Assembly: GCA_023078685.1 (NCBI GenBank)
Contig: JALGAS010000011.1
Span: forward strand, 682,001-746,000
From: Neopestalotiopsis rosae
Taxonomy: Eukaryota > Ascomycota > Sordariomycetes > Amphisphaeriales > Sporocadaceae
Length of the DNA stretch: 64,000 bases
Direction: 5' to 3'
Below, one piece after another: positions 13,386 to 37,519 of the stretch. Positions within the stretch are counted from its first letter, which is position 1. Each line of letters starts with the position of its first letter. The translations under genes and the position numbers were made by a program. The notes beneath the pieces are model-generated. The model ran no database searches. It was not told the origin of the DNA and was given only the letters and a program-made list of their open reading frames with translations.

Positions 13386-14254
13386 TACCCCTTTTTTTAA
13401 AAAATAAGGACTCGTCCCGAATCTAAAAAATAAAAAAAAACGGGCTAATTTAGGCTTAAATTAAATGCTTTCTAGGCGGAAAAGGGGCACCCTCGGATTA
13501 ATTTATATATTATTATATTATTAGGCTTTTAACCGGCTAGCGGAAATATATTCGTATTACGCATTATTCGTTGCGAATTTTTTTGCTATTTTAATTTAAT
13601 TTAGCCCTTGCGCGGCTTTTTTTTTCGCTTTATTTTTATTCCTTTTTATGCGGGTATATTATTATCCGCGTGGTTTTTTATAAATTTTTCGTATTCGGTT
13701 ATTTTTTTTTTAATTTTATAGCTTTATCGGGGGTTTAAAAGCTTTTAGGTATTTATTATAATATTTTTATAATACGACGGGATTATTTTTAAAGCTTTTT
13801 ATATTATATTATTTAGGGTCGGGGTTTTATCCCTTTTATTAAATTTAATATTATAATTTATTATAATATAAACGGGCGCTAAGAATTTTGCTAATTTTCT
13901 ATTCCTTTTTACCGTTTAGTTTAACGTTTTTATTATCGGGATTTTCGTTCGCTTGTCCCGGTATCGGGTTATTTGGATATTTCCTTAATTTATCCGCGTA
14001 AAAAATCCGAGGTCCCTTTTAAAAATCGGGAAATTTAAGCTTATATAAATAGCCGTTTATTTTCTCGATTTTATAATAATTCCTAATAAAAAGGAAATTT
14101 AGCTTATTATTAAAATAATTAATTTATATACCGGCTTTTTTAATAATATAAACCCGATCGCTAGGTTTAAAATTAAATTCGCGTTTATATTTATTAGCTT
14201 GCTTAATTTATTTTTATTATATTTTAGCTATTATTTTTTTAGTAATTTTTATTA

Positions 14255-14395
14255 TTGCACCTTGTGGTACAGGAGAGTAGTATGAAGAAGCATACATTAC
14301 TAACGATAGGTTAGCCGAAGGCCAATCCCATATATTTAAATCTAGCTGCGCTAAACGCTAAGCCTAATCTGGCCATAAGGTTGGGTTACGCCCAA
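14255..14395 (+). repeat. 141-bp multi-hairpin element, copy 1
   Basis: Begins TTGCACCTTGTGGTACAG and ends GGTTGGGTTACGCCCAA. Three adjacent inverted repeats are visible: ATAGGTTAGCC/GGCCAATCC with a GAA loop, CTAGC/GCTA, and terminal TTGGG/CCCAA. It lies inside gypsy family 2. This copy shows more G-to-A changes than the others. Confidence 0.85.
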
Positions 14396-14972
14396 TATTT
14401 ATAAATTAATAATATATATCGGTTATTTGCTATATTTTTTTTCGATTAAGCTTTTTCTTAGCCGTTATATCCGTGAATTCCTTAATACGTTATTCTTAAT
14501 CGAATAAGAGCGGTATAAGGAATCCTTTTTTAGCCTTATAAAGAGATATTTTAATAAATTTATACGGGACCGATGCCTAAATAGCGTTTAAAGCGGGGAT
14601 TATTTTTAATTGATTATTTTAATAATAAAAAATAAATAATTAAAGCCTTTAATTAACGTATTCGTTTATAATTTTTGCTTATTTAGCTATTTAAAAATAT
14701 CCGGCGGACGATAGCTTTAGCTTTATTCCGATAATTTTAAATAGCTTATTAATAAAATCCGCAATAAATTAAGGGCCACGATCCGTTCCGAATATTTTTA
14801 GGAATCCGTATATTTTATACGGACCGAAATTATATATTTTAGCGGCGTTTTTAATTATAGCCGTTTAATTATATAATATATATTAGGCTTTTTTTCCTAA
14901 GCGATTAATTATTACGAATAGGTTATCGAACCCGTATTTATTTAATAATATCGTTTTAAAATTTGCGATAAT

Positions 14973-15502
14973 TATTACGAATATGCACCCAGCAGGAAGA
15001 TAACGAATAATAGCGCTTAAGAGGATAGGTTGCGGGGCCCAAAACCACTAAATAAGGACCGCACGTCTTATTATAACTAATAGCTGCCGCTACCTGGCTA
15101 ATAAAATCACGGCTTTAGCGCGTAAGCTATAAAATAAATTACGCTTTCGGAAAGTAATCCAAAAAAGGATCACGGTTTAAAATAATAATCCAATATAAAT
15201 TATTATTTGCTATAATAATCTAATATTAATATTAATAAGGGATAAATAAATATATAAAAAACGGATTTCTTACGGTTATATAAATAATTATTATTTTAAT
15301 AATTAATTTAAATATTTATTTTATTTATAAATAAAGCATTTAATACGCTTTAACGATTATATTTATAAATCCTTTTAAAATTATTTTAATTATTTTTTAT
15401 TTAATATAATTATTTTTTTAATTAGCGCATTTTATTAATATAAACCTATATAAATTTATATTCTAGGTTTATTTAAAAAACCCGACCGTATAATTCGTTA
15501 TA
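14973..15502 (+). repeat. 5' LTR of gypsy family 1
   Basis: 530 bp, starts TATTACGAATATGCACCC and ends CGACCGTATAATTCGTTATA (originally TG...CA). Same length as the 3' LTR at 21844-22373; a third copy stands alone at 47817-48331. Confidence 0.9.
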
Positions 15503-18500
15503 TTTTAATTATTTTTATTTAGGTACGTTATTTTTAAAATAATTTTAAATAATATTTAATAAAAATATTAATTATCGGAAAAACTCCTTTTTTTTATCTA
15601 AATAATTTTAGCGCGCTCCGGCGGCTAAAATAAAAAAAAACGATTTCGAGCTTTTTAAAAAATAATATAAATTTATTATAGCCTAATTATACGAATTATA
15701 TTAAGATAACCTCCGTAAAAAATAAATTATCCGCAACCTTACCGAGGCCAACGCTATTATAATAAAAATAATTAATAATACTCCCGTATATTCGGAAAAG
15801 CTTAAATTTAGCGTATTTACGGCTTTTAATAATATCCCTAAAGCTTTCCGAGGATATTTAGCCTAAATTAAAGCTTATTAAAATTTTTACGGTAACGATT
15901 TTATAACCGAAAAATAAAAAATCCTTTACGCGTTATCCTATTTTAAAAAACGAATATTTATTTAATTCGAACCCTATTTTTTTAATATTATTAAAAACGA
16001 ATAATAGCTAAAATTTTATAAAAAGGAAATTTAAAATATTTTCGAAAATTATATAAAATATAAAACCGCGCTTCGGTCTTTATTCTAGGATCCGGATAAA
16101 AAGCGATAAATTAAAAAAGAATTTAAAAACCTTAAATAAAAAATATTAATATTTAGCTATACGGCGGATTTTAAGCGTATTATCGCCTAAATAGAATGCA
16201 TTAACGATATTCGAATTATATTTTATTATTAAAAATTTAAAAACGATATTAAAAACGAAATTAATAAAATTCTCGAACCCCCGACGGAATTCGGTAAATA
16301 TAGCGAATTCGTAATTAAAATTAATAATTAATTATACGCACGAAAAAACGAAAAAAGGAATTATTTTATTATTTTACGGTTTTAGCGCAATTACGCGAAT
16401 ATAAAAAAACCCCGAAAAAATCGTAATTCGCGAAATAAATAACGCTATAAAATATTTTATAGGAATTATAGCGGATTTATAAACCTTAATATTATTTAGC
16501 GCAAAAATATAATTAAGGTTAAATGCTATAATTATAACGAAATAAGCTATTATGCGAATAAATATTTTAAAAATAAAAAAAATAAATTTTAATTAATATT
16601 AAAAAGCAAGCGATAGCTTAATAGCGCTAAGCAAAAAAAAATACCTTATAATTTTTTTTAAATAGCGTATTACGACGATAATTATTAAATATATAAATTT
16701 AATAAGCGAAATAATAAATAATACCTTTAAAAGCCAAAAACTTTAACCGCCGCGATACGCCTAAAAAAAATATTTATATCGGTTTAAAAAAATAATTAAT
16801 AAATAGCGATAACGATATTATCGGCAGCGCTTTAAAAAAATAAAATTTATTATTAAATTAAAAAAGCAAAATAATAGCTCTAATAATAATAAACGACCCC
16901 GTTTATAAATAAAATTAATAATAATAAAAAAAATACCCGCGATCCTTTAAAAGCCAGCGTTAACGGCTATAAAAAAAAGGGAATTTATTACGAAATTAAA
17001 AACTTTTATTAGGGAAAAACTCGAGCACGAATTCTAATAAACGCGACTAAATAACGGAAACGCTAAATATATATTATCCGCCGTAAAAATATACGAAAGC
17101 GGACGAATATTCGCAAAAATCTTATAAAAAAATTAATATTTAATAGGAAAAAAAAAACCCCAAAAATAATACCCGGAAATAACCTCCGATTAAACCCAAA
17201 ATACCTTTAATACGGATAAATTGCGTAAATAAAATATATCGATTTAAAATACGACCGATATTTCGAAAATAAAACCGCTTAAAAAATATTCCTATTAAAA
17301 ATAGGCAAAAACGCTATTAGCTACCTTTATTTAGCTAAATACGCAAAAAAGGCAAAAATAAGCTATTGCGATATACGAAAATACGTTATATTTATTTCGC
17401 ATTTTAGCCCCTCGTAATATTTAATCGATAAAATAAAATTATAATAAATATATTTATAAAATAATTATATACGCTATATATTAAATAAGGTAAGGGCATA
17501 GCGATATATTAGGGAATCGAAAATAGCGGGGAGATTTAAAATTAAACCCGTTAAAAAATTATTAAAATTAAAAAAAAATCCTTAACCGAAGAAGAAATAA
17601 CGGGTAACGTATTTTACCGCTAAAAAAGGGACGAAAACCGTGCCTAACGAAATTAACGGATATTAAATAACGCCGCGAAAAAGCGTGCCTAATATAAAGC
17701 TAAATAAAAATCGGGAAACGACCTAAATTATTTTTAAAAAAGCAAAAGCGGTCCATTTTAAAAATATTTATTTATGCTATTAAAAGCGATAATAAATTAT
17801 ATAATTATTTAACGATAAAAATATAAATTATAAAATAACGTATATAAGCCCTAATCGATATAAAAGCTTAAGGAATTTTTATTTTATTAAAAATCGTTAA
17901 TAATTTCGATATATTACGAAAAATGTAAAAAACGCTTTACGCATTTAATACCGTCGATAAAAGCCCTATATTATATAACGGAAAAATAATTAATCGGGAA
18001 ATTGCGCATATTTAGATTTTTATTTAAAATTATTATAAAAAACTTACGTACGATATTACGGGAATTACGGATTACGATTTAATTTTAAAAATACCCTAAT
18101 TATAAATAAGCAATCCTAAAATAAATTAAAAAACCGGCTAATTTTAATAAAATACGCTAGGAAAAAAGCTAGCTTTTAAAAAGAATTTATTAAATAAACC
18201 TTTAAATAACTTTAAAATATTTAAATTTTATTTAATAACTAAAAATATTAAGCCGAATATTAATAAAATAATATTTAAAAAATATAAGGAATTTAGCGAT
18301 TTATTTAATAAAAAATTAAAAATAGGAATATTAAAATATATATAATACGATTACGAAATACCTTTTAAAAAAAACCTTATTATATATTAATTCGCTTTAT
18401 ATAACCTTAATATAAAATAATATTTAAGGAGTATATCGACAATATATTAAAAAAAGGGTAAATTATTAAAAGCCGATTACCCGCCGGATACCCTATCCTT

Positions 18501-21500
18501 TTCGTGCCAAAAAAGGGAAAAGATAAAAAGCCAAAAAAATAAAAGCTTTATATCGATTACCGCAAGCTTAATAATATTATAATAAAAAATCGTTATTTAT
18601 TTTTATTAATAAGCACGTTACGCGATAAATTATATAGCGCTTAATAATTTACGGTTTTAAATTTATTAAACGCGTATAATTTTATTAAAATTAAAATAAA
18701 AAACGAATAAAAAACAAATTTTCGCTACGAACTCGGATATTACGAATATAAAATAATGCTATTCGGGCTTATTAACGCATTAGCTAATTTCTAAAATATA
18801 ATTAACGACGTCCTAATGGAATTTTTCGACGAATTCGTCGTTATTTATTTAGACGATATTTTAATTTATTCCAAAAATTTGGAAAAATATAAAAAATATA
18901 TAAAATAAATATTACGGAAATTCCAAAATACTAAATTATTAATTAACCCTAAAAAAAGCGAATTTTATCGCAAATAAATTATTTTCGTAAAATACGTAAT
19001 ATCCCCCGGAGAAATTAAAATAAAAGATTTTAAAATCTTAGCAATTAGGGATTGGCCTACCCCGAAAACGGTTAAAAAAATTAGATTTTTTTTAAAATTT
19101 ATAAATTTTTATTAAATATTTATTAAAAAATTCGGAGGTATCGCAGCACCCCTAATATATTTAATAAAAAAAGATATATTATTTAATTAAATTATTAAAA
19201 AATAAAAAGCTTTTAAAAATATTAAAAAACGAATTATAAATAAATTTATAATATATATAATAAACCTAAATAAAAAATTTAAAATCGAAATAAATACTTT
19301 AAATTATGCTATAAGCGGATAATTTAATTAATAAAATAATAAAGGAAAATTATATTTTATAACTTTTTATTTTAAAAAATTTATTAAAAAGCAATTTAAT
19401 TATTAAATTTATAATAAAAAATTAATAATAATTATTAAAATATTCCGAAAATAAAAATATTATTTTAGCGGAATTAATTATAAAATCTAAATTTATACCG
19501 ATTATAAAAATCTCGCTTTATTTATTATTAATAAAAAATTTAATAAACGATAAATTAAATAAATAAAATTTTTAATAAATTTTAATTTCGAAATTAGCTA
19601 CCGAAAAAGATTTAAAAATGAACGAGCCGACGCATTTAATCGCCGGCCGGATTATTATTAAAAAATGCTTAAAAAATATATATACCTTTTTTATTAAAGG
19701 AGAAAACGGGAACCTAATTCCTACGATAATTTTTTACGCTATAATTAGGGTTATTAATAAAAATAATTAAACGGATCGAATTATTAATAAAAACCTTATA
19801 CCGCCGTTATTTTACGGAAAATTTAAAATACCGGAAGAATTCCGTAACGAATTTATTACGGATTTCTATATTATGCTAATTATTAAATATTAAGGCATTT
19901 TTAAAATAACTAATCGAATCCGATAATATTTCGATTGCGTAAACCTTAAAAAAAGAGCTATTAATATTATTAAAAAATACGACTTATATAATAAAGCTAA
20001 AACCGCTAAATATAAATAATATAAAAAATTGCAATTTATATTACCGCTAAATAAAATATAAAAATTTATTATTTTAAATTTTATCGTAAAATTACTATTA
20101 TTAAAGGAACCTTTAATAAAATTTTTTATAATAGCATCCTAATATTTATAAAACGATTTATTAAATACGCTTATTTTTTTTTATATAAAAAAGCTAATAA
20201 CGCAAAAAAATTAATTTATACGTTTTTTCGAACGATAGCTAATTAATACGGATTATTAAACGAAATTATTTTAAACCGAAATAAATTATTTATATCGAAA
20301 TTCTAAAAATTATTTATTAATTAATTAAAATACGATTATAAGCTATTTATAGCGTTTTATCCGTAAACCGACGGATAAATAAAAAAAATAAATTAAATAT
20401 TTAAAAAATATTTACGATATTACGTTAATTATTAGCAAAATAATTAGGTTATATTATTATTATTTGCGCAATTCGCGTATAATAATATAATACGAAAATT
20501 TATAAAAATATTATTATTTTACGCTAATTACGGCTATAAACCAAATATTATAAAAAAACCCCTAAAAAAAAGGAATTTATATTATATACGATTAAAAATA
20601 TAGGATAATTTAAGGAATTATAAGCTAAATTTTAAAAATTTTTTATTATTTTGCAAAATAAAACTAAAAAATATTATAATAAAAAAAAATTAAAAAATTA
20701 ATTTTTACGGAAAAAAATATAATTTACTTTTTACGCAAAAATATTAAAATAAAACGATTAAGCGATAAATTCGATTTTAAAAAACTCGGAATATTTATAA
20801 TCGAAAAAAAAATCTCGGATATTAATTATCGATTTAAATTACTAAAAATTATAAGGAATTACCGAATTTTTTATATTTTATTATTAAAATTAATATTAAA
20901 AAACGCTAAAATCGACGAAACGCTAAAAATAAAACCAAATTAGCAAAAATATATTATCGAAAAAATTATCGATTATAAAAAAATTAGACGAAAATACTAA
21001 TTTTACGTTAAATAAAAAAATTATTTATTTAAAAAAAATATTTAGGAATCTAAAAAATATATTAAAAGCTATGCCGCTTTTAATTAATATTTTTAATTTC
21101 GGCAAAAAAACCAGGATTTCTAAAATTATTTTCGAGGCCTAAAAAATCCTATTTTATAGCACTCCAATTTATTACGTCGAAAAAACCCGTAATCGCCGCT
21201 ATAGCTTTTATTTCCTTTTTAAAAACTAATTATTTTTTGCTAAACGCAGCACGCTCGCGCGCATTATTTTTATTTAATTATTATATATTACGGCGAAATA
21301 AATCGTCGCCCTTCGATTTAATAAATTTCCTTTATTTTCGGAGGCGAAAAAGCTTCGCTACCGCCTCGCTCGTTTTTTTCGTAATCCGCTTAATTTCGCG
21401 CTAATTAGCGAAAATTTTTTCTTTTATTAATTTTTTTTTTCTCGCAAACCGCTTTTCCTTTTTTATCGCCCAAATAAAAAACGATCCTATTAAAATGCTA

Positions 21501-21843
21501 TTATAGCTACGATTATAACGAGAGCATTCCCCGTAGCGCGTAAAATCCTTTTTTATAAAGCACGACTTTTTATGCTTAAAATAATAAAAATATAGCATAT
21601 TAGCAAAAAAACCGTATAGCCTAATACGAATAATAAGGCTTTTGCGCTTAAATTTTTTTTTTTAATTTTGTTTTAAATTTTAATTTTAATTTTTTAATAC
21701 GACCTAATATAATAAGCCTATATTACGAATAAAATATAAAAAAAATAAAAAGGGAACTAAAAAACCGCGAAAAGCGGGATTACGTGATTTATTTATGCGA
21801 TTAAAAATTTTTCGAGGATAAAAAATATAAAAAAAAGAGCTAA

Positions 21844-22373
21844 TATTACGAATATACATTTAGCAGGAAAATAACGAATAATAGCGCTTAAAAGGATAAG
21901 TTACGGGGCCTAAAATTATTAAATAAGGACCGTATATCCTATTATAATTAATAACTGCCGCTATTTAGCTAATAGGATTACGGCTTTAGCGCGTAAGCTA
22001 TAAAATAAATTACGCTTTCGGAAAATAATTTAAAAAAGGATTATGGTTTAAAATAATAATCTAATATAAATTATTATTTATTATAATAATCTAATACTAA
22101 TATTAATAAAAAATAAATAAATATATAAAAAACGGATTTCCTACGGTTATATAAATAATTATTATTTTAATAATTAATTTAAGCATCTATTTTACCTATA
22201 AATAAAACATTTAATACGCTTTAACGATTATATTTATAAATCCCTTTAAAATTATTTTAATTATTTTTTGCTTAATATAATTATTTTTTTAGCTAGCGCA
22301 TTCTATTAACATAAACCTATATAAATCTATATTCTAGGTTTATTTAAGAAACCCGACCGTATAATTCGTTATA
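21844..22373 (+). repeat. 3' LTR of gypsy family 1
   Basis: 530 bp, matches 14973-15502 throughout, with differences almost all C/T or G/A. Followed directly by the duplicated target ATAAT. Confidence 0.9.
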
Positions 22374-24182
22374 ATAATATATTATTACGTACGCAATAAA
22401 ACGGGTAATAGCTTTAATAAACCCGGTATTTTATCCTTTAGGTATTTAAAAAGTTTATATATATAATTTTCTATATACCGATTTACGTTAATAAATTAGC
22501 CTAGCTATTAATATCGAGCGGAAATTATTTTTTTAGTTTTAAAGCGTTTTGAATAGGTTATAATTAACCGTTTATAAACTTTTTCCAGGATTTTTATGCG
22601 AAAATTATTAACGTTAGGGATAATAAAACGTTTATTATATAGTATTAATCGTTTATTTATATTATACGGCTAATTTCCTCCCGAATTCGTTATTGCCTTA
22701 TTGCGAAAAATCTTTAAATTTAAATAAATAGCGTTATTTTTTAAAATCTAATTTATTAATTCGAAATTAAATAATTCCGGCGGGGGTATATCCTCGTTAA
22801 GCAAAAATATTTTTGCGTTAAAATTTAAAAAATTATTAAAATATAATCGGAATAAAATTATAATGCGCTAAATTTTTAGCTTTTTTTTAGGTTTTTTTTT
22901 ATTTTTTAAATAGGATAAAATATTAATTATTATATTTTAAAATCCCGGGCGGTAAAAAATATAAAAATTATATTAAGCTATTAATTTTATTTATTTAGCC
23001 TATTTAAAATTTAGCTACCGCTTAATATTAAAATATTCGAGCGCTTTATAATTTATTATAATTAAAAAAAAATAAGGATTTTAAAATCCGATTAGCTTTA
23101 ATCGCTAATTTTAAAGCCCGCGGATTATAGCTAAAAACTTTTTATTATAAATACTATAATTATTTTTTATATTTTAAAAGTTTTCCGAATAATACGCTAT
23201 AAAGTGCTATTTTCCGGTTTCCTCGTTTTTTTAAAATAATATTTTAGCTAAAATACCGTTAAACGCATTAATTTTTATCCGTATTTCGAAATTATACGAA
23301 AAATAATTTAGGATAAAAGTTATTATTAGGCGATTCCTAAATTCCTCGAATACGGCTTTATATTCGGCGTCGAAAATAAAGGCCTAATTTTTATAAATAA
23401 GCTTTATTATAAATTTGGCTATTCGGCCGAATTCTCGAATAAATTTCCTATAAAAATTATAAAAATTTAGGAAAAATTATATTTTTTTACGGTAATTAAA
23501 TATTTTTAATTTTTAAAAACGGTTATTTTTTTAGGGTCGATTTTAATATTATCGATATTTATAATAAATTTAAAAAATTTAATACGGGTTATATAAAATT
23601 TATATTTTTTAATATCGGCTTATAATTTTATTTCGCGTAATTTTTATAATATTTTTTTATATAAATTTTATATTTAATAATATTATCCGAAAAAATAAAA
23701 ATATTATTTATATACGCGCTATAAAAATCGTTTAAATATTTTATAAGCGTATTATTAATAAACCGCTAAAAAATAAAAGGTTTATTTAATAAACCGAAAA
23801 GCAATATTTTATATTTATATATATTATATCGTATATAAAATATTATTAAATTTTTATTTTTAGGAATTATCCGGATTCGGTAAAAAGCTTATTTAATATC
23901 GATTTTTATAAAAATTTTAGCTTTAGCTAAACGGCTTATAATTTTATTAATTAATAAAAAAATATATATATTTTTTTAATTAAAGCATTTAGCTTTTTAT
24001 AATTTATATATAACCGTAATTTTCCGTTCGCTTTAAGGGCGAAAAAAATAAAAGCGGTTTATAATGCGGAATTAGGCTCGATAAATCCTTTATTTAAATT
24101 TTCGATAATATATTTTTTATATACTTTTAATTTTTTTAGGGATATTTTATATAAAAGGCTAAATTTAAAATTTAAGGCATTA

Positions 24183-24323
24183 TTGGGCGTAGCCCAACCT
24201 CATAGCCAGATTAGGCTTAGCGTCTAGCGCAGCTAAACCCAAATATATAGGATTGGCCTTCGGCCAACCTATCGTTAATAATATATGCTTCTTTATACCA
24301 CTCTCTTGTACCACAAGGTGCAA
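24183..24323 (-). repeat. 141-bp multi-hairpin element, copy 2
   Basis: Reverse orientation; starts TTGGGCGTAGCCCAACC and ends CCACAAGGTGCAA. Flanks read AAGGCATT(A) and CAGGCATT, an 8-bp duplication with one mismatch. It lies inside gypsy family 2. Confidence 0.87.
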
Positions 24324-27300
24324 CAGGCATTTTTTTCAAAATTTATTTTATAATTTATTTCTAAATATAAGGATAGGAAGTTATCCGAGGCCGCTTTGCT
24401 AAATACGTTTAAGTATTCGTAATATTATTTTAGGACGATTTTGCGAATTTGCTGCCGTAAATCGTTATCGTCTCGTTTTAATTTTTTATTTTTTTCATTT
24501 GCGATTATACGGTCGATTTTATATAAATAAATAACCTTTATATTTTTAAAATCCATAATAATTAAAAATATTTTAGGGCTAATTACCGCGATATTTAATA
24601 TTTTATTTTTATATTATCCGAATAAATCGCGTTTTAAATAATATAAACTATTTTTATTTTTATATAATTAAGGGTTTTTAAGAGGCGATTGCTTTTTTTT
24701 TAAAAGCCCTTTATATCGGGACGTTTTTAATATTTTTTATTTTTTTCTAAAGCTTTTTTTATATTTAGCATATTTTTACGCTATAAAAGGGAATATATAA
24801 TTAAAAAAGCATAAATAATTAATTAGGGGATTAACTTTAAAAGCCGGGGTTCGTCGGTAATCGTCGGGCTTTACGCCTTTATAAGCTATTTTTTAATTTT
24901 AAAATACGCTTTTAAACGCTATTTAATTTTCGTTATTTTTCCTAAAAAGTTATTTTTTATATTTTATTTTTTTTCGCGAACGCTTTTACGATAAAAACTT
25001 TATTAATAAATAAACGGCGGAAAATAATTATAGCCTTTTGCTTCCTATTTTATTTCTTTTTATTTTTACGCTTTATTAGCTTATCCTTTTTTTCGACGTC
25101 GCGTTAAAATTATCTATTTTTATCCGGGATAAGGTTCCTAACCTAATTTATCGGAATATCGGTAATTCCTAAGCCTAGGAGATTAAAAAGAAAAAGCAAT
25201 CGATAATAACGTATATTAATATCGACGTCGTATTTTTTAAATTATTTTTTCCCGATAATTATATTATGCTTTATATTAATAATTATTAATAGCATTTGCT
25301 AAAAAGTCTTATCGGTAATCTTAAAATTAACGAATAAAATTACGTTAATTATTTAGGTTATTTTGCCGTTAAATCCGCCTACGGGCTTATATTCGAAATT
25401 TTTCGTTATTTTAGGCTTTAAAAATTTATATATATATTATATTAAATTTTAATTTACGAATAAATATCCGCTTACTCCCGTATCGGCGAAAGAATTTTTA
25501 ATAATTAACGATATATTATTATTCGCTATTAAATTAATAAAAAAAGGGGTTTTTTTTAATATTAAATTAAAAAAATTATATAGGATATTTTTTATTACGT
25601 TTTTTATAATCGATATATCCCCTAAAAAAAAGGCTATTTATCCTAAAGTTATTTTTTTTCCTTTTTATCGCTATTAAAGATTTCGCTTTCCTAATTATTT
25701 AAGCCCTTTTTTAAAAATCGCTTTAATTAATCGTAATTAAAAATAACTCGACCGAAGCAGGCTATAATAATAATAATTTTAGCAATTTTATTTTTATCGT
25801 TAAATTTGCTAATATTTTTCGGATAATTATAAATAAAATATCCGGTTTCGTTATAATAAAAATAGCGTCCCTTTTAAATTCGACGCTAGATTTTTAAATT
25901 TAATAATTTAAAAATATCGGTAACCGGCTTAATTTTATTTTTATCCTTATTTTTAGGCTTATTTTTATTTTTTTATTATTTTTTTTTATTTTTATTAAAC
26001 GGAAGCTAATTTTTATTATTTTAGCGCTATATATAAAATAAATTAAAATTAAAAAATATTTCGGCTCCCTAACGAATATATTCCTAAAAAATTATATTTT
26101 TATTAATATAAAATTATACAAAAGCGTTAGCTAAGCTAACTAATAAGCGACGCTTAAATTCGTTTTTTTAAATATTTTTATTAACGCGGCACTTTTTTAT
26201 TAAACGGATAAATTCGTTTTTAAACGTTTAATAATTATTACTTATTTTTATATATAGCTTTTAAAATTCGATAATAGCGTTTTTTTTTATATTAAAATCG
26301 TAATACTCCTTTTAAAAATATTTTATAAAAGCCTCGGTAATTTCGATACGGTCGAAATATCTTTAGCGTAAATACGGTATTAAAGCCTTAAACGCAAAAT
26401 TTTTAATACGGGATTTAATTTTAGCGAATTTAGCGTATTTATCGTTAAAATAATCGGCATTTATTTTTAATTTATCGGATATTTAAAAATATTATTATTC
26501 GAATATAACGTTATCCTTATCGGCGTCGTTATAAAAATCGGGAACGTAAAGCTTACCGGATTTTTTAGATTTTTTATATAAAAAGGTAGCAAATATTTTT
26601 ATAATAATATTAATTTTTCGTAGGCGCGCTTTAAGCTAAATAATTTTATTTTTTAGGGTTTAATATCGTCGGGCCTGCTTTTTTAAAAAATTTATTATAA
26701 CGTCGACGTCGTCCTAATATTCGTTATTTTAATCTTTTTTTTAGATAGCGAGCTTTTTTACTAGCTTATTAGCCTAATTAAATAAATTTGCTAAATTAAT
26801 AATATTTTTATAATTTCCTAAATATATCTTTTAAATTTATATAATATAGGCCTTTATAAAATATATTCGGATTTTAAATTCGTCCTATATAGCTTTTATA
26901 TTTTTTTTATAAAATTTCTAAAAATATTAAAAAATAATAGCGCTATCGGTTTTAGGCTATATTGTTTTTCCTTTAGGGGTAAAATTAACGAATTTTATAA
27001 TCGGCTTGGTATTTTAGGCGTAATATTTAGCGAAATAATTTATTTTAAATCGGAAATTATTTAGGAATATTTTAAATTTAGGGGAAAAAGCGGCTAAGCT
27101 AATATCGGTATATTTCTAAAAAAAGACTTTATAAAGGGCCGGTTCGGGTTCGTCCTTTTCTCCCTATTAAAAAATAATTATTTTATTAACGGCTTTAAAA
27201 ATTTCGATATTTTCGGTAGCGTAAAATATTTATCGGAGGCTGGAGTCGATTTTAATTTTAGGCTTCGTAATTTTATTTAATTTATTATTTAAATAATTTA

Positions 27301-27579
27301 CGGCCTAAACGGCCTTTTCGAGGACTTTTTTTACGGCTCCCTCGGCGGCGGGAGTATCTTTTTTAGGACGGAGCTGCCCTCGGCGGTATCGGCTATAATA
27401 ATTAAAAATATCGATTAATAAGTGGGGTTTTAATCCGGGTATATTTTCCGGCGCGTTTTAGCACCGCGTTTATTTTAATGCATTATTTAAATCGTGCGAT
27501 TTTTATTCGTTTTCGGTTTTAAAAATCGGTGGGATATTATTAATGCCTTCTTAAGCGGTTATCGATAATTTTTAAATTA

Positions 27580-27785
27580 TATTACGGTCCGGGAGGTTAT
27601 ATAAGCTAAGCTAATATATACCCTATTAATATATATTAATTTAAAGATAAAAAACTAAAAATCTACGGAGCTACGGGCGTTGCTTTATATATAATACGAA
27701 TAGCATAATAGGGGACGAACCTTATTAAAGCTTACCCGTAGCGTGCCAATAGCCGGTTAGTAGGGCAGCCGCAACTACCATTACA
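27580..27785 (-). repeat. right LTR of gypsy family 2
   Basis: 206 bp matching 13179-13385 by transitions only over most of its length. It is the 5' LTR of the minus-strand element. Flanking sequence resumes as TTAATAACTCAACGG, which matches the intact MITE sequence near 37040-37070. Confidence 0.85.
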
Positions 27786-29474
27786 TTAATAACTCAACGG
27801 TTATTTTATAAATTTAAAAATTAAATAAAATAATTAAAAATTAAATAATACCGCAATTAAATAAGCTTGCCCGTTAATTAACGTATAATAATAAAAGCTA
27901 AGCTTGAATTATTTTATTTATATATTAAATTATTAACTCAAACTTAATTAAATTAATTTATTTAAATTTTACTTAAGCAACTAATTTAATTAATTGAGTT
28001 TAAGTTAATTATTATAAAAACTTAATTCAATTAATTAATTAACTAACTCAATTAAATTTAAATTAAACTTATTTAAATTAACTACCAGTTAACTCAAAGC
28101 CAACCCTAATAATAATTAACTAATTACGGATAAAATAAAATAATAAATGAAGTAATAAATATCATTAAGTTTTAACGTTTATTATTAAAATCTAATTTAA
28201 AAAAATAAAAACGCAAAAGCTCTAGTAATAAGCCTAGTTTTATTAATTTTATATTTTATTTCAAGGTTTTATTAATTATTAATATGGTTGTAATTATTTT
28301 CTTAAGTTAACTATATAATTTAGTTAATAACTAAATCATTTAATTTTAATCAGACAATTAACTAAATCAATTTAATTTTAATTTAGTTTAATTTAGTTTA
28401 ATTATTAACTAATAATTAAAGAATTAATTAATTTAATTGATTTCATTTAATATAAATTACAATAACCACTTAAATTAATAAAACAAAAGAAAACTCATAA
28501 AATGCCGTAAAAATGGATACTTTGCCTTATTTAATAATATTTATTTCGAATTTCTCAAAAATGGCATTTTAAAAATAATAAATTTTAACAAACTTTTATT
28601 ATTTTTATCTTAATCCTTATAATTTGAATTTTTCTATAAAAAATAAAAAAATAACAGCATTAGCTTTCTTTTTATTTCTTTCATTAATAAAAGTAATAGA
28701 GCTTTAGATAATTCATTATTTTCATTAATTTAGCCTTATTCTTTTAGTTATTAGTTATTCTAATTATTAATTAAACTAAATTGATTTAGTTTTAATCAGG
28801 CTCCTAACTAAATCATTTAGTGTTAATCAGGACTCTTAATAACTAACGTTGGTTATTAGTTAACTAAATTAAACTTAGTTTTTAATTAACTAACGTTAGT
28901 TAACTATTAGTTACCTAAATTGCAACCCTGATTATTAATCAATATTTTATCCATTTTTAAAATAAATATTGAAAATTGATTTTCAATAAATAAAATAAGA
29001 TAAATAATGCATAGAACTTCCTTTTTGCGTTATTCGATCTTATATAAAGCCTTAATTAAAAAAGTAATTTCAAAATCGTAATTATTTAATTATTAATTAA
29101 ACTAACTAAGAATTACTCGTAATTAATTAGTTGCTTGAGTAAAGCTACGTAGTTTAGTTAATAAGGTGAGTAAAACTACGTAGTTTAGTTATTAGTTAAC
29201 TAAAACTAATAACTAAAACTAATCGTTGCAACCCTGGTTATAACGAAATACGTCCGCGAAATCCACAAGTTATTATTAAAAGGAATCGAAAAATGCAAAG
29301 CTAATGACATTTTACTTCAAAATTATAACAAAAAAACCCTAAACAGTGAATCAATTAATTATTTTATTTACCCATTTATTCATTTATTTATTTTATTTTC
29401 ATTTTTATTATTAATTAATTAATTAAATAAATTACTTTATCTGGTGGAATTTAGTTTATAATATGGTTAATACC

Positions 29475-29868
29475 CAGGTTAGGAAAGGCAGTTTCCAGTT
29501 AGTTAGTGCAATTGCATTTAACTTAAGTTAATTATAATTAACTGCATTAAAATAATAAAATAATTAATACAAAATCGAATAATTAACTTATTTAAAAGTT
29601 TTCTTTTTAGAATAAAACGTTATATAAAGCTTAATAAAAAGCTATTATAAGGTTTCATATTTTATTATTATTTAAGTAAATAATAAAATTTATATTATAG
29701 CAATAAGCAGTTAATGAACTTAATTGCAGAGTGCAATTGTTAGTTATTTTGCAGTTGACTGCAAAAAATGCAGTTGCAGTCTAGACTTTAACTAACTGCA
29801 ATTAGTTAAGTTGCAGTCCGGATTTCATGCAGTTAAGTTAACTGCCAGTTAACTGCATTCCTACCCTA
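29475..29868 (+). mobile_element. hAT-like MITE, GCAGTTAACTGC family
   Basis: 394 bp. Ends are CAGGTTAGGAAAGGCAG and TGCATTCCTACCCTA, inverted repeats with one RIP-like change each. Flanking 8-mers are TTAATACC and TTGATACC, one G/A mismatch, fitting an 8-bp hAT duplication. Confidence 0.8.
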
Positions 29869-30844
29869 TTGATACCAGTTTAAAATTAAAAGGTTTATTA
29901 ATTTATATTTACTGGATAACCGATAAGGCTGAGTTTTAAAATATCTTTTTTTTACTAGCTATTCAGTTTATTTTAACCTAATTATAAATTTCTTTCAAAA
30001 TCTTTATAAAGCCAAGCATTAAATTATAAGATGAATTTCATACCACTTTACCGACGGTGTTATTATACGTTTATGACTTCTATTCAAAATTAAATGAGCT
30101 TCGAACGGATTATTCCAGATTAAAACAGCGTTACCCTAAAGCAATAAGTTATTTACTTATTTTATTAACTCAATTAGTTAAGGCTATTAAAGTCAGTATA
30201 TAAAGATTGCATATTTACTTTCCGAAAAAAGTTGATTCCGGTAATTTTCGAAAATATAAGCCATTTGTACTGGCTATTCTTTCGGATCCTCGATTATAAA
30301 TTCATCATTTTAAACGCAATTAAATTTTTTGTTTTTATAAAAAGGTTTCATTGGACGTTATTTTACCTTCAAATAAAGTTTACGACGAGTAAATTTCATT
30401 TATTATTTTTAGTTAATTAAATCCTTTTTTTTATTCATTTTAATAAATAATTGATATGTAATAAAATTAGACTGCAACGGGCTGGAGAAATCGAAACCTA
30501 AACACAAGATATGGTTAAATTTTATAATTCTGATAAAGAAGGGTTTTTTATTAACCGTCGATTAATTATCGTTTAAAACGAATATGAAATTTATATACGT
30601 AAATCAGCCGCTCCTAGCGACGTAAATAAGTTATTTTACGTTTTGATTAATTGATTAACTAACTAAAAACTTAATTAGGAGGACTTAATTATTCATTAAA
30701 AAACAATTAGTATTAATTTTCAGTCTTAGTTATTTTAGCCCGGCGGTATTTAAATATACCGGCTACTTCGGCTACTTTCAAACGAAGTTTTTTTACTTTA
30801 AGCTATATTATTACGAAATCCCAAAATAAGTTAAGTCCTAAAAG

Positions 30845-31454
30845 CAGGGTAGGAATGCAGTTAACTGGCAGTTAACTGCAATGCAGTTAACTTAACTGCA
30901 TAAAATCCGGACTGCAACTTAACTGACTGCAGTTAGATAAAATCCGGACTATAACTGACTGCAGTTAGTGAAATTAAAACTTAAACTTAACTGCACTAAC
31001 TGCAGTTAGTAACTGCACTAACTGCTAACTGCAATAATAATAAAATAAATAATATTTTAATTAGAACTAATAAAAATAAGTGGTTTTTATTTATTATTAA
31101 GTTATATTATAATTTAATAAATTAATAACCGATGAAATAAATACTTCATAATAGCAAAAAAAGGTAATTAAATTTAATTGATTAAATTTAAACAAGTTAA
31201 AATTAAATAATTAAGGGCTTTTAAATTAAAACTATTAAAATTAATTCAAAAGTGCAGTTAGCAGTTAATTTACAGTTAACTTGCAGTTAACTGCATTATT
31301 AAATGCACTAACTTAAGTTAACTTAAGTTAGTGGAATCCCGGACTTAAACTGACAATTAACTGCATGCAGTTAGTAAAAGTCCGGACTGCAACTGCACTA
31401 ACTTAAGTTAACTGCAACTGCACCAACTAACTGCAGACTGCCATTCCTACCCTG
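30845..31454 (-). mobile_element. hAT-like MITE, GCAGTTAACTGC family, best-preserved copy
   Basis: 610 bp, with intact inverted ends CAGGGTAGGAATGCAG and CTGCCATTCCTACCCTG and a perfect non-repetitive 8-bp target duplication CCTAAAAG on both sides. The interior is dominated by GCAGTTAACT, GTTAACTTAAGTTAAC and related palindromic units. There is no coding capacity. The end sequence and 8-bp duplication place it in the hAT superfamily (non-autonomous). Confidence 0.9.
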
Positions 31455-31751
31455 CCTAAAAGAGTTGAATAATTAATTTTACTGAAAGGTTGGGGGTTAA
31501 AATTAACTCAGGAAATGGAGGAGTTTTTATAACCGGAGGATGGGATGGAGGAATAAAAGGATTAGTTCTTTTTATTTATTTTATCTTATCTCTTTAGTTT
31601 CTTTAGTTTTAGTTTCTTTTATTTTTATCAGGGTTGCAATTTAAATAACTAATAGTTAACTAACGTTAGTTAACTAAAAACTACAATTAGTTTAATTAAT
31701 TAAAAACTAACGTTAGTTATTAAAATGCTAATTAAAACTAAATTGATTTTG

Positions 31752-31892
31752 TTGGGCGTAGCCCAACCTTATGGCCAGATTAGGCTTAGCGTCTAGCGCA
31801 GCTAGACCCAAGTATATGGGATTGGCCTTCGGCCAACCCATCGTTAATAATATATGCTTCTTCACATCACACTTCTGTACCATAAGGTGCAA
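31752..31892 (-). repeat. 141-bp multi-hairpin element, copy 3
   Basis: Reverse orientation, TTGGGCGTAGCCCAACC to CATAAGGTGCAA. The hairpin TTGGCC-TTC-GGCCAA and the stem around GTCTAGCGCAGCTAGAC are intact. Flanks share GATTT. Confidence 0.87.
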
Positions 31893-31946
31893 TAGATTTA
31901 ATTAGGACCCTGATTAAAACTAAATCAGATTTGTTTAGTCAATAAC

Positions 31947-32592
31947 CAGGGTTGGCACGATTAGTTTTAGTTATTGGTTTTAGTTGATTAATAATTAAAC
32001 TACGTAGTTTTACTTACGTAACTAATTAATTATAATAGTTTTATTTATTTCACTAATTAATTACGTGTAGTTATTAATTAATTTAGTTAGTTCAGTTAAT
32101 AACTAACTAATTACGACTTTAAAAAGCTTTTCTTTAATAATTGAAATAATTAACAGCCTATACCGAATAAAATAAATAATAAAAACGAAGTATAAAGAAA
32201 TTATTCCCTTATTTTTCGAATATTAACTGGACTTTTAATATTTCTTTTAAAAATTACTAATTAGATATGAAATAATAATAAATTAAAATTAAAAAATTAA
32301 AAAAACTAAATAAAAACCGATATAAATAATAAAATTACCGAAGTTATTTCTTATTTATTCTTTTTTATTAGATTTTAATAATAACGGTTAAAAAGAAGTA
32401 ATATTAATTATTTTAATTATTCTTTTATTTTATTCGTAGTTAGTTAGTCAGTGTAGTTAACTACTAACTACGTGTAGTTTTGTTTTAATCAGATTATTAA
32501 CTAATTACGGTAGTTTTACTCAAGTCACTAACTAACTACGGTTGTAGTTAACTACGCGTAGTTAACTATTAGTTAACTAAATGCCAACCCTG
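31947..32592 (+). mobile_element. hAT-like MITE, GTAGTTAACTACG family
   Basis: 646 bp. Ends CAGGGTTGGCACGATTAG and TAAATGCCAACCCTG are inverted repeats. Internal units are ACTACGTAGTTTTACT and GTAGTTAACTACGCGTAG. Flanking 8-mers TCAATAAC and TTGATAAC differ by two transitions. It sits inside the 31629-33112 MITE. Confidence 0.78.
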
Positions 32593-33387
32593 TTGATAAC
32601 TAAATTAACTAATAACTAAAAGGAAAAATAAAAATTAATTAAAATAATTAATAATATTCAATAATAAGAATGTAATTAATAAAAATAATAAAAAGAAACC
32701 GGATGCCGTAGGTATTTTATTTTTATTATTAAAATTCGAATTTTTAGAATCAAAATAAAAGCAAGAGTTAATTATTAAATTTTAATATTTTTAAATTGCC
32801 ACTTTTGAAAAATTTAAAATAAACATTAATCACCAATATAAAGAATCCATTTTAACGGCATTTTATTTACTTTCTTATGAATTATGAGTTTTAATTATCA
32901 TTTATATTAATATTAAATAAAAATAACTAAATTTTTTATTTCTTTAGTTTTTAGTTAATAATTAAATTAAATCAAAACTAAATTAAATTAATCAGTAGCC
33001 TAATTAGAACTAAATTGATTTAGTTAGGACTCTATGCAAACTAAATGATTTAGTTACCAGGCTGATTAAAACTAAATGATTTAGTTAACTAAAGAAATGA
33101 ATTACAACCCTGGTTTTTTATTATTTATTTTATTAAAATATAACAGAATAAACCCGATAAAATAAATAAGTAAAATGGGGTTTACGTGAATTCTAAATTT
33201 TATATTAAAAATAAACGTTAATAAATAAGATTTAGTACTTATTAAGTTAATTTTAAGTAGTTAATTAAATAAATTAATTATCTTTTCTTTTTATTTTAAT
33301 TTAATAGTTGAGTTTTTAAGTTATTAAGTTATTAACTCGAATTTAATTGATTTCATTACAATTAGCACCCTAATTAAATCAGTTGAG

Positions 33388-33600
33388 TGTCACGGTACTG
33401 TACGGGAGCCGGTCTCTGCCTAGCATGGGGTACAATTAGGTGTATTAACGAAGCTGGAGAATAAACAATCCTCCAGCCCGGCGAAGATCTATTTACGCCC
33501 CCGACCGGTAGGATGGTCGGGGCCGGGTGGAGCTGGCTGCAGCGCAGCAGCCGGTCGCAGTGGGGCAACCAGGTGGTGGGGCAACTAGTGCGCCATCACA
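33388..33600. mobile_element. un-mutated G+C-rich solo LTR
   Basis: 213 bp from TGTCACGGTACTG to GCGCCATCACA, with TG...CA ends and a perfect 5-bp duplication TTGAG on both sides. Base composition is ordinary and G+C-rich, in sharp contrast to all surrounding DNA. The start resembles the gypsy family 2 LTR (TGTTACGGTCC) and the length is close (206-207 bp), but the interiors differ, so it is probably a related family. A 64-codon frame on its minus strand is incidental. Confidence 0.8.
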
Positions 33601-35237
33601 TTGAGTTTGAGTTAGCAAATTCAAAAACTTAATTAAGTTAGTTAAATAACTCAATTAATTGAATTTGAATTAAACTCACTTAAATTAACTGCCAGTTAAC
33701 TTAAAGCCAACCCTGTTTATTATTAGTATTTTAATTTTTTATTCGTTTTAAATAACTAATGTTAATTAATTATTAGTTAAATGAATTATAACCCTGCTAT
33801 GCAATAACTAAAGCTCGTATTTCAACCTGCTAATTAAAGGTAAGTCAATTTAATTCAGTTAATAACTAAAGTGACGTAATAAGTAAAAGTTAAAAGCAGA
33901 ATTACATTAAATAATAAGTAATTTACAGCCTTAATAGCTAGCTGAGTGAGACAAATAAAAGAAACTAAATGCCGTTAACTTTATATTTCTAATTTAATTT
34001 TGAAAACTCGAAATAAATATTAATCAATACGGTGAAATACTCATTTCTATGGCTATTTATAAGTTTTCTTTCGTTTTTTAATTTCTATGGTTATATTAGT
34101 TAATATTAAGCAGGCTTGGAAATTAATTAACTTGCAATCAATTCAAATGCGTTCCATTCAAATTTAATTAATTACTTAAGTAAAACTCAATGACTTGATT
34201 ATACTGCTGATTATAATTTAATCATTTGAGTTTGAGTTACTACTTTAATAACGCACTAGTTCAAAGATTTAATAAAATTTAATGGAAATTCAAGAAATAA
34301 TTGAATACTAATTGTTTATAAGTCAATTAATTAAATCATGAGTTAACTCAAGGGGAACTGATTTAATTACCACGGCGACTAAAACTCAAGTCAAGTGATT
34401 TAATTCAAACTTAAAATCAAAACTCAAACTCGAGCTGCCAGCTCTAAGAATAAGTGAAATTAATTGAACTAGATAAATCACTAGTTATCAAAGTTACAAT
34501 TTAGTTAACTAATAATTAATTAACGTTAGTTAATTAAAAACTAAATTTAGTTTAATTAATTAGTAAGTAACAATAACTAACGTTGTTTTTCAAACTGTTA
34601 ATTAAAACTAAATGATTTAATTAGGCTTTTAAGTAAAACTAAATCAATTTAGTTTTAGTTAGTAACTAACAGGGTTGTGAAATAGTTAACTAATAATTAA
34701 CTACGAGTAATTAACTAAAAACTACGCGTAGTTAGTTAGTAAGGTGAGTAAAATTACCGTAGTTAGTTAGTTGCTTAAGTAAAACTACGTTAATTAATTA
34801 GTTGCTTGAGTAAAATTACGTAGTTTAATTATTAGTTAACTAAAACTAATAAGTGAAACTAATCGTAACAGCCCTGGTAACTAAACTAACTAATGACCAA
34901 AAGAAAAAAGCCAAAATAAAATAAAATAATTAATTATTATAAGCTTTATTAATTGAATTCATAAAAGAATAAAAAAGAAACGCAAAAGCGTTGTTCTTTT
35001 ATTTATTAGGACAACTCGAGTGTCAATAAATAAAATAAAACCGTAAGCAAAATATTAAAATTAATTTTTTAAAAATCCCTATTTTGAAAAATTCAAAATA
35101 AACATTAATTAATATGGTAAAATACCCATTTCTTCGGCTATTTATAAATTACTTTTAATTCTTTTGATTTGAATGGTTCTTTTAACTAATAAAAAATGAA
35201 GATAATTATATTAATTAAATCTTTGATTACTGGTTAT

Positions 35238-35652
35238 CATGGTAGGAAAGGCAGTCTGCAGTTAATTAGTGCAGTTGCAGTCAACTTAAGTTAATGCAGT
35301 TGCAGTCCGTATTTTTTCTAACTGCATGCAATTACTTGTTAGTTTACGTCCGTGATCCCACTAACTTAAGTTAACTTAAGTTAATTGCAGTTCGATATAA
35401 TTAAGTGCATAATAATAATAAATAATTAATAAGAAATCGAATATTTAAAGTATTTTAAAGCTTTTTCATTAATAATAAAGGATTAAATAAAGCTTAACAA
35501 AAAGGCATTAAAAGTTTTAATATTTTATTATTAATAAATTAAATAATATTACTTATAAAATGCAGTTAATAATTAATTAACTTAACTGCAAGGTGCAGTT
35601 AGTAGTTATTTTGCAGTTATTTAAAATGCCAGTTAACTGCATTCCTACCCTA
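35238..35652 (+). mobile_element. hAT-like MITE, GCAGTTAACTGC family
   Basis: 415 bp from CATGGTAGGAAAGGCAGTCTGC to CTGCATTCCTACCCTA; interior of GCAGTTA / TTAACTTAAGTTAA units. The flanking 8-mers do not match, so one side may have been rearranged. Confidence 0.65.
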
Positions 35653-35855
35653 TTCATTAATTAAATAAAATAAAAAACTCTTTACTTGAATAATTACCAG
35701 ACTTATTATTAATACTTTGATTGCTTTAGCTATTAGTTTCTAGTTAACTAGTAATTAATTAACGTTAGTTAACTAAAAAGTATATTTAATTTAATTAACC
35801 AATAACTAACGTTAGTTATTAAAAGTCTTGATTAGAATTAAATTAATTTAGTTTG

Positions 35856-35996
35856 TTGCACTTTGTGGTACAGTGGTGTGATGTGAAGAAGCATATATTA
35901 CTAACGATAGGTTGGCCGAAGGCCAATCCTATATACTTGGGTCTAGCTGCGCTAGACGCTAAGCCTAATCTGGCTATGAGGTTGGGCTACGCCCAA
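35856..35996 (+). repeat. 141-bp multi-hairpin element, copy 4
   Basis: TTGCACTTTGTGGTACAG to GGTTGGGCTACGCCCAA. All three hairpins are intact. Flanks share TAGTT. Confidence 0.87.
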
Positions 35997-36410
35997 TAGT
36001 TAGTCCCCTAATTAAAACTAAATTGATTTAGCTTAGTTTATAACTAAAGAAATTAATAACTAAAAGATTAAAGCTAAATTAAAAAAATAATTAAAAAGAA
36101 ACGCAAAGCTGTTATATTTTTATTTTTATTGTGCAAATTCGTTGTTAATAATTAGAATGAAACCGTTGGCAAAGTATTAAAATCTATTATTTTTAAAATG
36201 CCACATTTTAAAAATTCGAAACAAACACTCATTAATACGGTAGAATTCTTTTTTTACGGCTACGGCTATTTATTAGCTTTCTTCGGTTCTTCAAGATGTA
36301 GTGGGTATTATTATCAATTAAAATTAAAATTAATCAAATTAATTAAATTTTTAGTTATTACTTAATAATCAAAATAAACCAAGATAAATTAATTTAATTA
36401 ATACTTTATG

Positions 36411-36551
36411 TTGCACCTTGTGGTACAGGAGAGTGGTGTGAAGAAGCATATATTACTAACGATAGGTTGGCCGAAGGCCAATCCTATATACTTGGGTCTA
36501 GCTGTGCTAGACGCTAAGCCTAATCTGGCCATGAGGTTGGGCTACGCCCAA
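36411..36551 (+). repeat. 141-bp multi-hairpin element, copy 5
   Basis: TTGCACCTTGTGGTACAG to GGTTGGGCTACGCCCAA. Flanks are ACTTTATG on the left and ACTTTACT one base after the right end, suggesting a target duplication of 6-8 bp. Only about 415 bp from copy 4. Confidence 0.87.
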
Positions 36552-36819
36552 CACTTTACTTAAAACTAAATCATTTAATTAATTAAAGAAATTAACTACA
36601 ACCCTATTGATAATTAAATCAAGGCCTTTAATTTTAATAAAAGTATTAATTAAATCATTTAATTGTAATTAAAGTGCTAACTAAATTAATTTACTTCAAA
36701 TTAGCACTTTAAAAACCTAACGTTGGTTTTTAATTAATTGAATTAAATTTAGTTCTTAAATAACTAACGTTAGTTAATTATTTATTAAGTAAATTGCAGC
36801 CCAGCTTCTTAATTATTGA

Positions 36820-37519
36820 CAGGGTTGGCAGCTTGAGTTTGAGTTTTGAGTTTGAGTTTGAGTTAACTCACTTGAGTTGAGTTTTACTCACCGTTTTTAA
36901 AAACTCATTAAGTTTTACTCAAATAACTAACTAAATCAGTGAGTTTTACTCACGTAACTAACTAAATCAATTGAGTTTTACTCACATTACTAACTAAATC
37001 AAATGAGTTAATTAACTCAAAACTCAATAACTCAACGGTCTTTTAACTCAAAACTCAATAACTCAACGGTATTTTAATCAAATTAAAAATTAAATAAAAC
37101 CGGTAAAAATAAAATAAACCCGTAATTAAGTGAGTGTGGCCGGAAATTAATTATTTACGTTAATGATTAAATTATTATTTAAAGATTGAGTTATTAACTC
37201 AAAATTAATTGAGTTTTACTCATCGAGTTTTACTCAGGCTGGTAACTAAATCATTTGAGTTTGAGTTAGCACTTTTAATAACTTGTTGCACCTTGTGGTA
37301 TAGAAGAGTGATGTGAAGAAGCATATATTACTAACGATAGGTTGGCCGAAGGCCAATCCCTTATATTTGGGTCTAGCTGCGCTAGACGCTAAGCCTAATC
37401 TGGCCATGAGGTTGGGCTACGCCCAATATAACTCAATTAAGTTAGTTAATTAATTAAATCAATTAAGTTTGAGTTAAACTCACTTGAGTTAACTAGCAGT
37501 TAACTCAAAGCCAACCCTG
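36820..37519 (+). mobile_element. hAT-like MITE (TTGAGTTTGAG family), without retrotransposon
   Basis: Ends CAGGGTTGGCAGCTTGAG and CTCAAAGCCAACCCTG are intact inverted repeats. Flanking 8-mers ATTATTGA and GTTATTAA differ by two transitions. It contains a 141-bp element (37286-37426) and a small tandem duplication around ACTCAATAACTCAACGG near 37020-37070. It is the reference for the copy disrupted at 12971-28108. Confidence 0.82.
37286..37426 (+). repeat. 141-bp multi-hairpin element, copy 6
   Basis: TTGCACCTTGTGGTATAG to GGTTGGGCTACGCCCAA. Flanks share ATAACT. It is inserted within the 36820-37519 MITE. Confidence 0.87.

What the first reader, a model, noticed from the sequence alone, without database searches (positions are those of the whole stretch)
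14255..37426. Six copies of an exactly 141-bp multi-hairpin element in 23 kb
Copies at 14255, 24183(-), 31752(-), 35856, 36411 and 37286 are each 141 bp with the same ends (TTGCACC...CGCCCAA) and three consecutive hairpins (ATAGGTTGGCC-GAA-GGCCAATCCTAT with one bulge; TCTAGC-TGC-GCTAGA; TTGGGC-TAC-GCCCAA). Flanks show imperfect 5-8 bp duplications. The ends are not good inverted repeats of each other, so this is not an ordinary MITE. They are much less RIP-mutated than their surroundings, either because they are short or because they are young. They could be a structured-RNA retroposon or a hairpin-mobilised element. I do not recognise the family.
Basis: partly seen in the sequence, partly recalled or inferred. 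Interest (0 to 1): 0.75.

Follow-up and report, generated by a model that had tools for sequence, protein, structure and literature searches.

The report
Centromere-only solo LTRs in a fungus
The six repeated hairpin pieces are leftover end-repeats (solo LTRs, 145 bp) of a retrotransposon that, in this fungal genome, was found only in one AT-rich block on each of seven contigs, most likely the centromeres, so they make a handy centromere marker but are not a new kind of element.

Summary
Of 42 copies examined at full length, 28 have an exact 5-bp target duplication at one fixed offset, against 8 of 1722 between-copy pairs. Two copies nested in an older element have their empty site preserved in a sister element. 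Three elements of 2.6-9.9 kb carry this sequence at both ends with a purine-rich tract beside one end: it is an LTR, and the six window copies are solo LTRs. A pattern scan gives 41 hits, all in one cluster on each of seven contigs; the window's cluster is a 38-kb, 23% GC, gene-free block. A review gives seven chromosomes for Neopestalotiopsis, a probable relative. This is a centromere-confined LTR family, of the same kind as VdLTRE9 or GlCEN427. The hairpins are real parts of the LTR; covariation is weak. Unexpectedly, the long elements show no retroelement domain in the frames scanned, although more AT-rich Gypsy remnants nearby do, so the family may be non-autonomous.

The parts
14253..14397 (-). 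solo LTR 1 (145 bp; strand = sense by the purine-rich tract of the long elements), target duplication TTTAT at 14248-14252 and 14398-14402
35854..35998 (-). solo LTR 4, no target duplication (0 of 5 letters agree)
36409..36553 (-). solo LTR 5, target duplication CTTTA, both TG and CA ends kept; core 100% identical to C11:4172542-4172682, which has another duplication (AATAA)
37284..37428 (-). solo LTR 6, target duplication TAACT
11751..49500 (.). AT-rich (about 23% GC), RIP-mutated block without open frames of 150 aa, between ordinary genes at about 50% GC: putative regional centromere; holds all six copies

Best explanation
The 141-bp element is a 145-bp LTR (TG...CA, 5-bp target duplication) of an LTR-retrotransposon family confined to one AT-rich block per chromosome, in all likelihood the regional centromeres. 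The six window copies are solo LTRs. Shown: LTR structure, exact 5-bp duplications, two filled/empty site pairs, three longer elements bounded by the same LTR, a purine-rich tract next to the downstream LTR, confinement of the hits found to seven clusters on seven contigs. Inferred: an element is reverse transcribed, an integrase (its own or a helper's) inserts it into centromeric chromatin, LTR-LTR recombination then removes the inside and leaves one LTR plus the duplication; elements that stayed long were RIP-mutated, while 145-bp solos are below the length RIP is thought to act on. The hairpins are palindromes of the LTR itself, kept perhaps as RNA or protein-binding signals; they are not the means of movement.
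For: Exact 5-bp duplication in 28 of 42 copies at one offset; the two neighbouring offsets, which overlap the same duplication, give 13 and 11, the next best 2; between-copy control 8 of 1722 (9 fragment hits of the 51 were left out, none of which has an exact duplication). Empty sites for C11:4172542 and C11:4170578 in E1, each 75 of 75 letters aligned without gap at 90.7% identity, one copy of the duplication. E1 (C1:3981180-3990815) has the LTR at both ends and CCGTT on both sides; E2 (C11, 9.9 kb) is 83-87% identical to E1; E3 (C16) is E1 with its middle missing. Purine-rich tract directly before the downstream LTR: 20 of 21 purines in E1, 18 of 20 in E2, 21 of 22 in E3 (my count). 41 of 41 pattern hits in seven clusters, reversed control pattern 0; the BLAST scans add further copies in or next to the same clusters. 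The clusters as I bounded them are 0.55% of the genome, and only 8 of 60 RVT_1 hits and 0 of 36 RVT_2 hits fall in them (my count). C10 and C12 have telomere repeats at both ends and one cluster each. The nearest relative lies on another contig for 39 of 42 copies, ties included, as for transposition, not local duplication. LTRs of long elements (7, counting one one-sided remnant) carry on average 26 C>T/G>A changes against copy 5, solos 8.2 (35; Mann-Whitney p 2.6e-4, copies not being independent).
Against: 14 of 42 copies lack an exact duplication: 7 are the LTRs of E1-E3 and of a one-sided remnant on C12; of the other 7, four agree in 4 of 5 letters and three in 0-2, among them two young copies (C1:3975463, 7 differences from copy 5; window 35856, 8 differences). 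No gag, RT, RNase H or integrase was found in E1-E3, and no plain primer-binding site (the letters after the 5' LTR are ATTAATAGC). No CenH3 ChIP or Hi-C data were at hand, so 'centromere' is inferred. No young full-length element was found, so the recombination step is not seen directly.
Confidence: 0.9

Rival explanations
1. The family is non-autonomous: even its long form (9.35 kb inside) never coded for a reverse transcriptase (LARD-like), and both long and solo forms were made with proteins of another retrotransposon. This refines the best explanation and does not contradict it.
For: Pfam scans with X at stops, E up to 1, found no retroelement domain in six frames of 8.8 of the 9.6 kb of E1, in six frames of E3, nor in E2 over about 9.0 kb in the sense frames and 6.2 kb in the antisense frames. 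The only matches were two of unrelated families well below their cut-offs (FeoB_associated E 0.02; NADase_NGA E 0.029). The same method finds RT (E 6.9e-16) and RNase H (E 1.4e-12) in a Gypsy remnant at window 17400-20400 whose detected stretch has 17.8% GC, lower than the 25.4% of E1. A protein search with a low-stop stretch of E1 scored none of 2082 candidates at E up to 1.
Against: RIP with frameshifts can hide domains; only three long copies exist and they may descend from one defective copy. Two stop-free runs of E1 (159 and 139 aa), three of E2 (139, 127, 105) and one of E3 (109) exceed the 95% level of 60 Markov sequences (118, 96 and 104 aa), and the longest sense runs of E1 and E2 lie at about the same place, so a gene remnant is possible. 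The Gypsy remnant has a different LTR of about 530 bp and is no evident helper.
Confidence: 0.3
2. A structured-RNA retroposon (SINE-like) that moves as the 145-bp unit.
For: Strong hairpins, fold z -3.86, -4.07 and -4.18; G and C columns in stems change half as often as others (0.073 against 0.161).
Against: Fixed 5-bp duplications, TG...CA ends, no A tail, paired copies bounding longer elements next to a purine-rich tract, no Rfam match on a copy.
Confidence: 0.03
3. A DNA transposon or MITE with TGTTG/CAACA ends.
For: Short terminal inverted repeat and a target duplication.
Against: The same sequence stands at both ends of E1-E3 in direct orientation, with a purine-rich tract; the inverted repeat is only 5 bp.
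Confidence: 0.02
4. The 145-bp LTR is inserted directly as a short LTR-only DNA and is not left by recombination.
For: 14 of the 42 copies differ from copy 5 at 8 positions or fewer (copy 5 counted) and none of these is the end of a long element; only three long copies are found genome-wide with the E3 inside as query.
Against: Solo LTRs commonly outnumber full elements in fungi (recalled); one assembly cannot separate the two routes.
Confidence: 0.05

Closest known systems
VdLTRE9 of Verticillium dahliae (PMC7482064, passages seen)
   Same: LTR element, short LTRs (about 200 bp), about 7.3 kb, AT-rich and RIP-marked, found nearly only at the centromeres (204 of 215 matches), only remote similarity to Gypsy
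   Different: There it covers about 70% of the centromeres on average; in this window the six solo LTRs are about 2% of the block (870 of 37,800 bases).
GlCEN427 Copia element of Ganoderma leucocontextum (PMC10817607, passages seen)
   Same: Centromere-restricted LTR family with paired and solo LTRs; two chromosomes with solo LTRs only
   Different: Basidiomycete; full elements there keep gag, integrase, RT and RNase H. No sequence comparison made
Tcen1-Tcen6 of Cryptococcus amylolentus (PMC5568439, passages seen)
   Same: LTR elements clustered exclusively at centromeres; Tcen1 has LTRs only and no coding domains
   Different: Basidiomycete; no sequence comparison made
LARD-type non-autonomous LTR elements of plants (recalled, no call)
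   Same: Long non-coding inside between LTRs
   Different: Known LARDs usually have long LTRs (recalled); here 145 bp, and the non-coding state is not proved

Membership tests
LTR retrotransposon | direct terminal repeats bounding a longer inside | tested here: met
   E1, E2, E3
LTR retrotransposon | TG...CA ends and 4-6 bp target duplication | tested here: met
   28 of 42 exact 5 bp; in these 28 the ends are TG or TA and CA or TA, 8 with both TG and CA
LTR retrotransposon | polypurine tract before the 3' LTR | tested here: met
   three of three long copies, with one C (E1, E3) or two C (E2) in 20-22 bases
LTR retrotransposon | primer-binding site after the 5' LTR | tested here: inconclusive
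   letters ATTAATAGC, no plain TGG; may be RIP-altered; no tRNA comparison was made
LTR retrotransposon (autonomous) | gag-pol with RT, RNase H, integrase | tested here: not met
   no retroelement domain in the scanned frames of E1, E2, E3; control positive. RIP could hide it
Centromere-specific LTR family (VdLTRE9/GlCEN427/Tcen kind) | copies confined to one AT-rich block per chromosome | tested here: met
   41 of 41 pattern hits in seven clusters on seven contigs; several chromosomes are split over contigs, and AT-richness was measured in detail only for the window
Centromere-specific LTR family (VdLTRE9/GlCEN427/Tcen kind) | blocks bind CenH3 | not testable with these tools
   no ChIP or Hi-C data
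Gypsy or Copia superfamily | order and type of pol domains | tested here: inconclusive
   no domain found
MITE / DNA transposon | inverted terminal repeats; not the direct terminal repeat of a longer element | tested here: not met
   direct repeats bound E1-E3; inverted repeat only 5 bp
SINE / structured-RNA retroposon | RNA-gene ancestry or A-rich tail, variable-length duplication | tested here: not met
   no Rfam hit on a copy, no tail, fixed 5-bp duplication

The most novel reading that the evidence does not exclude
A non-autonomous LTR family: a 9.35-kb non-coding inside with a tiny, strongly palindromic 145-bp LTR, moved by another element's proteins and yet delivered only to centromeres. 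Centromere targeting would then be a property that a non-coding element can borrow in trans, with the LTR hairpins as candidate recognition signals, and its solo LTRs would be the youngest datable insertions in these centromeres.
Probability: 0.25. Interest if true: 0.55.

Novelty: new member of a known kind. Interest (0 to 1): 0.38.

Why it matters
It gives a sequence tag for the likely centromeres of a group of plant-associated fungi. I saw no paper on centromeric repeats of this group among the rows listed by my searches (15 of 1,444 matching papers listed; 15 of 82; 10 of 12,235), which is no proof of absence. It also lets the relative age of insertions into fungal centromeres be read, because 145-bp solo LTRs are far less RIP-altered than what surrounds them. 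If the family is indeed non-coding, it would be a natural test of whether centromere targeting can act in trans.

Tried and rejected
MITE, SINE and structured-RNA readings were rejected on the direct terminal repeats, fixed 5-bp duplications and purine-rich tract. I looked for coding domains in E1-E3 with Pfam and for proteins like a low-stop stretch of E1: no retroelement match. I asked whether the Gypsy in the same block is the helper: its LTRs are about 530 bp and its ends differ; one match of 44 bases (86%, E 2.5e-6) between it and E1 was not followed up and may be chance in AT-rich DNA. Genome-wide RVT_1 and RVT_2 searches gave no hit inside E1 or E2. Hairpin covariation (35 sequences, 34 distinct): 93.7% of cells pair (1 of 500 shuffles reach that), covariation score 0.086 (3 of 500), 6 pairs with change on both sides (25 of 500), further pair types 20 (99 of 500); the tool warns that related sequences can exceed the shuffles without structure, and most changes here are C>T/G>A, so no strong claim is made. 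The outermost pair of the first hairpin is not formed in 23 of 34 sequences. A literature search for six terms on hairpin-bearing short LTRs in fungi found no paper with all six.
Full report
WHAT IS THERE. The window is contig C3:682001-746000 of a 53.77-Mb fungal assembly in 17 contigs. A P-type ATPase of the window has as its closest named relative a protein of Pestalotiopsis fici, 91% identical (the 99% entry carries no source or name, as the tool marks a window's own protein), so the fungus is a member or neighbour of the Pestalotiopsis group; the species is not settled. Bases 11751-49500 are AT-rich (core 23% GC, composite RIP index 0.59 against -0.49 and -0.77 in the arms) and hold no stop-to-stop frame of 150 aa. 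All six copies lie in this block.

UNIT AND STRAND. Extending the 141-bp core by two bases on each side gives TG/TA...CA/TA ends and exact 5-bp duplications. Of 51 BLAST hits in the stretches fetched, 9 fragments were left out and 42 were examined; 28 of the 42 have the exact duplication at the one offset (2,2), between-copy control 8 of 1722. The 14 without it are 7 LTRs of long elements or of a one-sided remnant, four copies with 4 of 5 letters alike and three with 0-2. Five of the six window copies have it. Of the 28, 8 keep both TG and CA, 15 have one end and 5 both ends in the TA form.

LONG FORMS. Four copies are followed by one common sequence and three are preceded by another. They pair up: E1 on C1 (9.6 kb, CCGTT on both sides), E2 on C11 (9.9 kb, with two later solo LTRs nested in it; outer duplication 4 of 5 letters), E3 on C16 (2.6 kb, E1 without its middle; CCAAA/TTAAA); the fourth, on C12, has lost most of its inside. 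E1 and E2 are 83-87% identical along their length. With the E3 inside as query only these three long forms are found in the genome (5 matches, all 5 candidates scored).

EMPTY SITES. The two solo LTRs nested in E2 have their empty sites in E1: 75 of 75 letters without a gap, 90.7% identity, one duplication copy.

WHERE. A 35-letter pattern with up to 3 mismatches finds 41 places, all in seven clusters on C1, C3, C10, C11, C12, C13 and C16; the reversed control pattern finds none. Three BLAST scans (40 candidates scored of 50, 54 and 41) add older copies in or next to the same clusters, the farthest (C11:4121794) 25 kb from the next. RVT_1 and RVT_2 hits are spread over the genome, 8 of 60 and 0 of 36 in the cluster intervals. 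C10 and C12 have telomere repeats at both ends, and each has one cluster; the contigs over 3 Mb without a cluster (C14, C15, C17) have a telomere at one end at most. [quoted passage not shown] 2024 (PMC12891159, passages). Seven clusters fit one per chromosome, though several chromosomes are split over contigs here.

AGE AND RIP. Against copy 5 (identical to C11:4172542, which has another duplication), the LTRs of the long elements carry on average 26 C>T/G>A changes and the solos 8.2 (7 and 35 sequences). The flanks of the 42 copies have 21.5% GC, the solos 44.7%, the LTRs of long elements 31.7%. RIP is described as acting on repeats over 400 bp (PMC2621366, passages), so a 145-bp solo may escape; that paper also reports a RIP-marked 275-bp repeat in another fungus, so length is no absolute rule.

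HAIRPINS. The 145-bp strand folds better than all 200 shuffles in each of three tests (z -3.86 sense RNA, -4.07 antisense RNA, -4.18 DNA). In 34 solos the G and C columns in stems change in 7.3% of cells against 16.1% elsewhere; for CpA/TpG columns alone it is 15.9% against 22.2%, for A and T columns 3.6% against 4.4%. On 35 aligned copies (34 distinct) 93.7% of cells pair; one pair (columns 69-90) occurs as A-U, G-U and G-C. This suggests constraint, but the covariation test is weak.

CODING. No retroelement domain was found in six frames of 8.8 of the 9.6 kb of E1, six frames of E3 and the scanned parts of E2 (about 9.0 kb sense, 6.2 kb antisense); two unrelated sub-cut-off matches were seen. 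The same procedure finds RT and RNase H in Gypsy remnants of the window with 18-19% GC, lower than E1's 25%. Against this, some stop-free runs of E1-E3 exceed the Markov control. So the long form may be non-coding, but a gene hidden by RIP is not excluded.

COMPARISON. Centromere-restricted LTR families in fungi are known: VdLTRE9, Tcen1-6, GlCEN427. The present family resembles them and meets the tests that could be made; CenH3 binding could not be tested and the superfamily is open. It is a new member of a known kind, with a possibly non-coding long form as its one unusual trait.

Noticed in passing
window 14973-22373: A degenerate Gypsy-like element in the same block, with about 530-bp LTRs at 14973-15502 and 21844-22373 (90% identical) and RT plus RNase H at about 18504-19600 (+); stretches alike lie in the C1, C10, C11 and C13 clusters.
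   Followed up: partly
window 22600-24100 (-): Second RIP-mutated RT/RNase H remnant; 88% match to window 38760-40349 (C3:720760-722349).
   Followed up: no
G000, e.g. C1:6046237, C9:411/10436/20451, C11:4127067: 29 of 60 RVT_1 hits have an identical score and no stop, 23 of them in 1188-aa open frames, several near contig ends, on C9 three at about 10-kb spacing: a young family not visibly hit by RIP, hinting that RIP is weak or absent now.
   Followed up: no
C12:4187131-4187271 and C11:4167358-4167498: Solo LTRs inserted into other copies of the same LTR (duplication GTGTT; GTTTA/ATTTA).
   Followed up: partly
C13:417200, C13:419594, C11:4121794, C16:442629: Four further old copies, three of them listed only with the diverged query and C13:417200 also by the pattern; not fetched or tested for duplications.
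   Followed up: no
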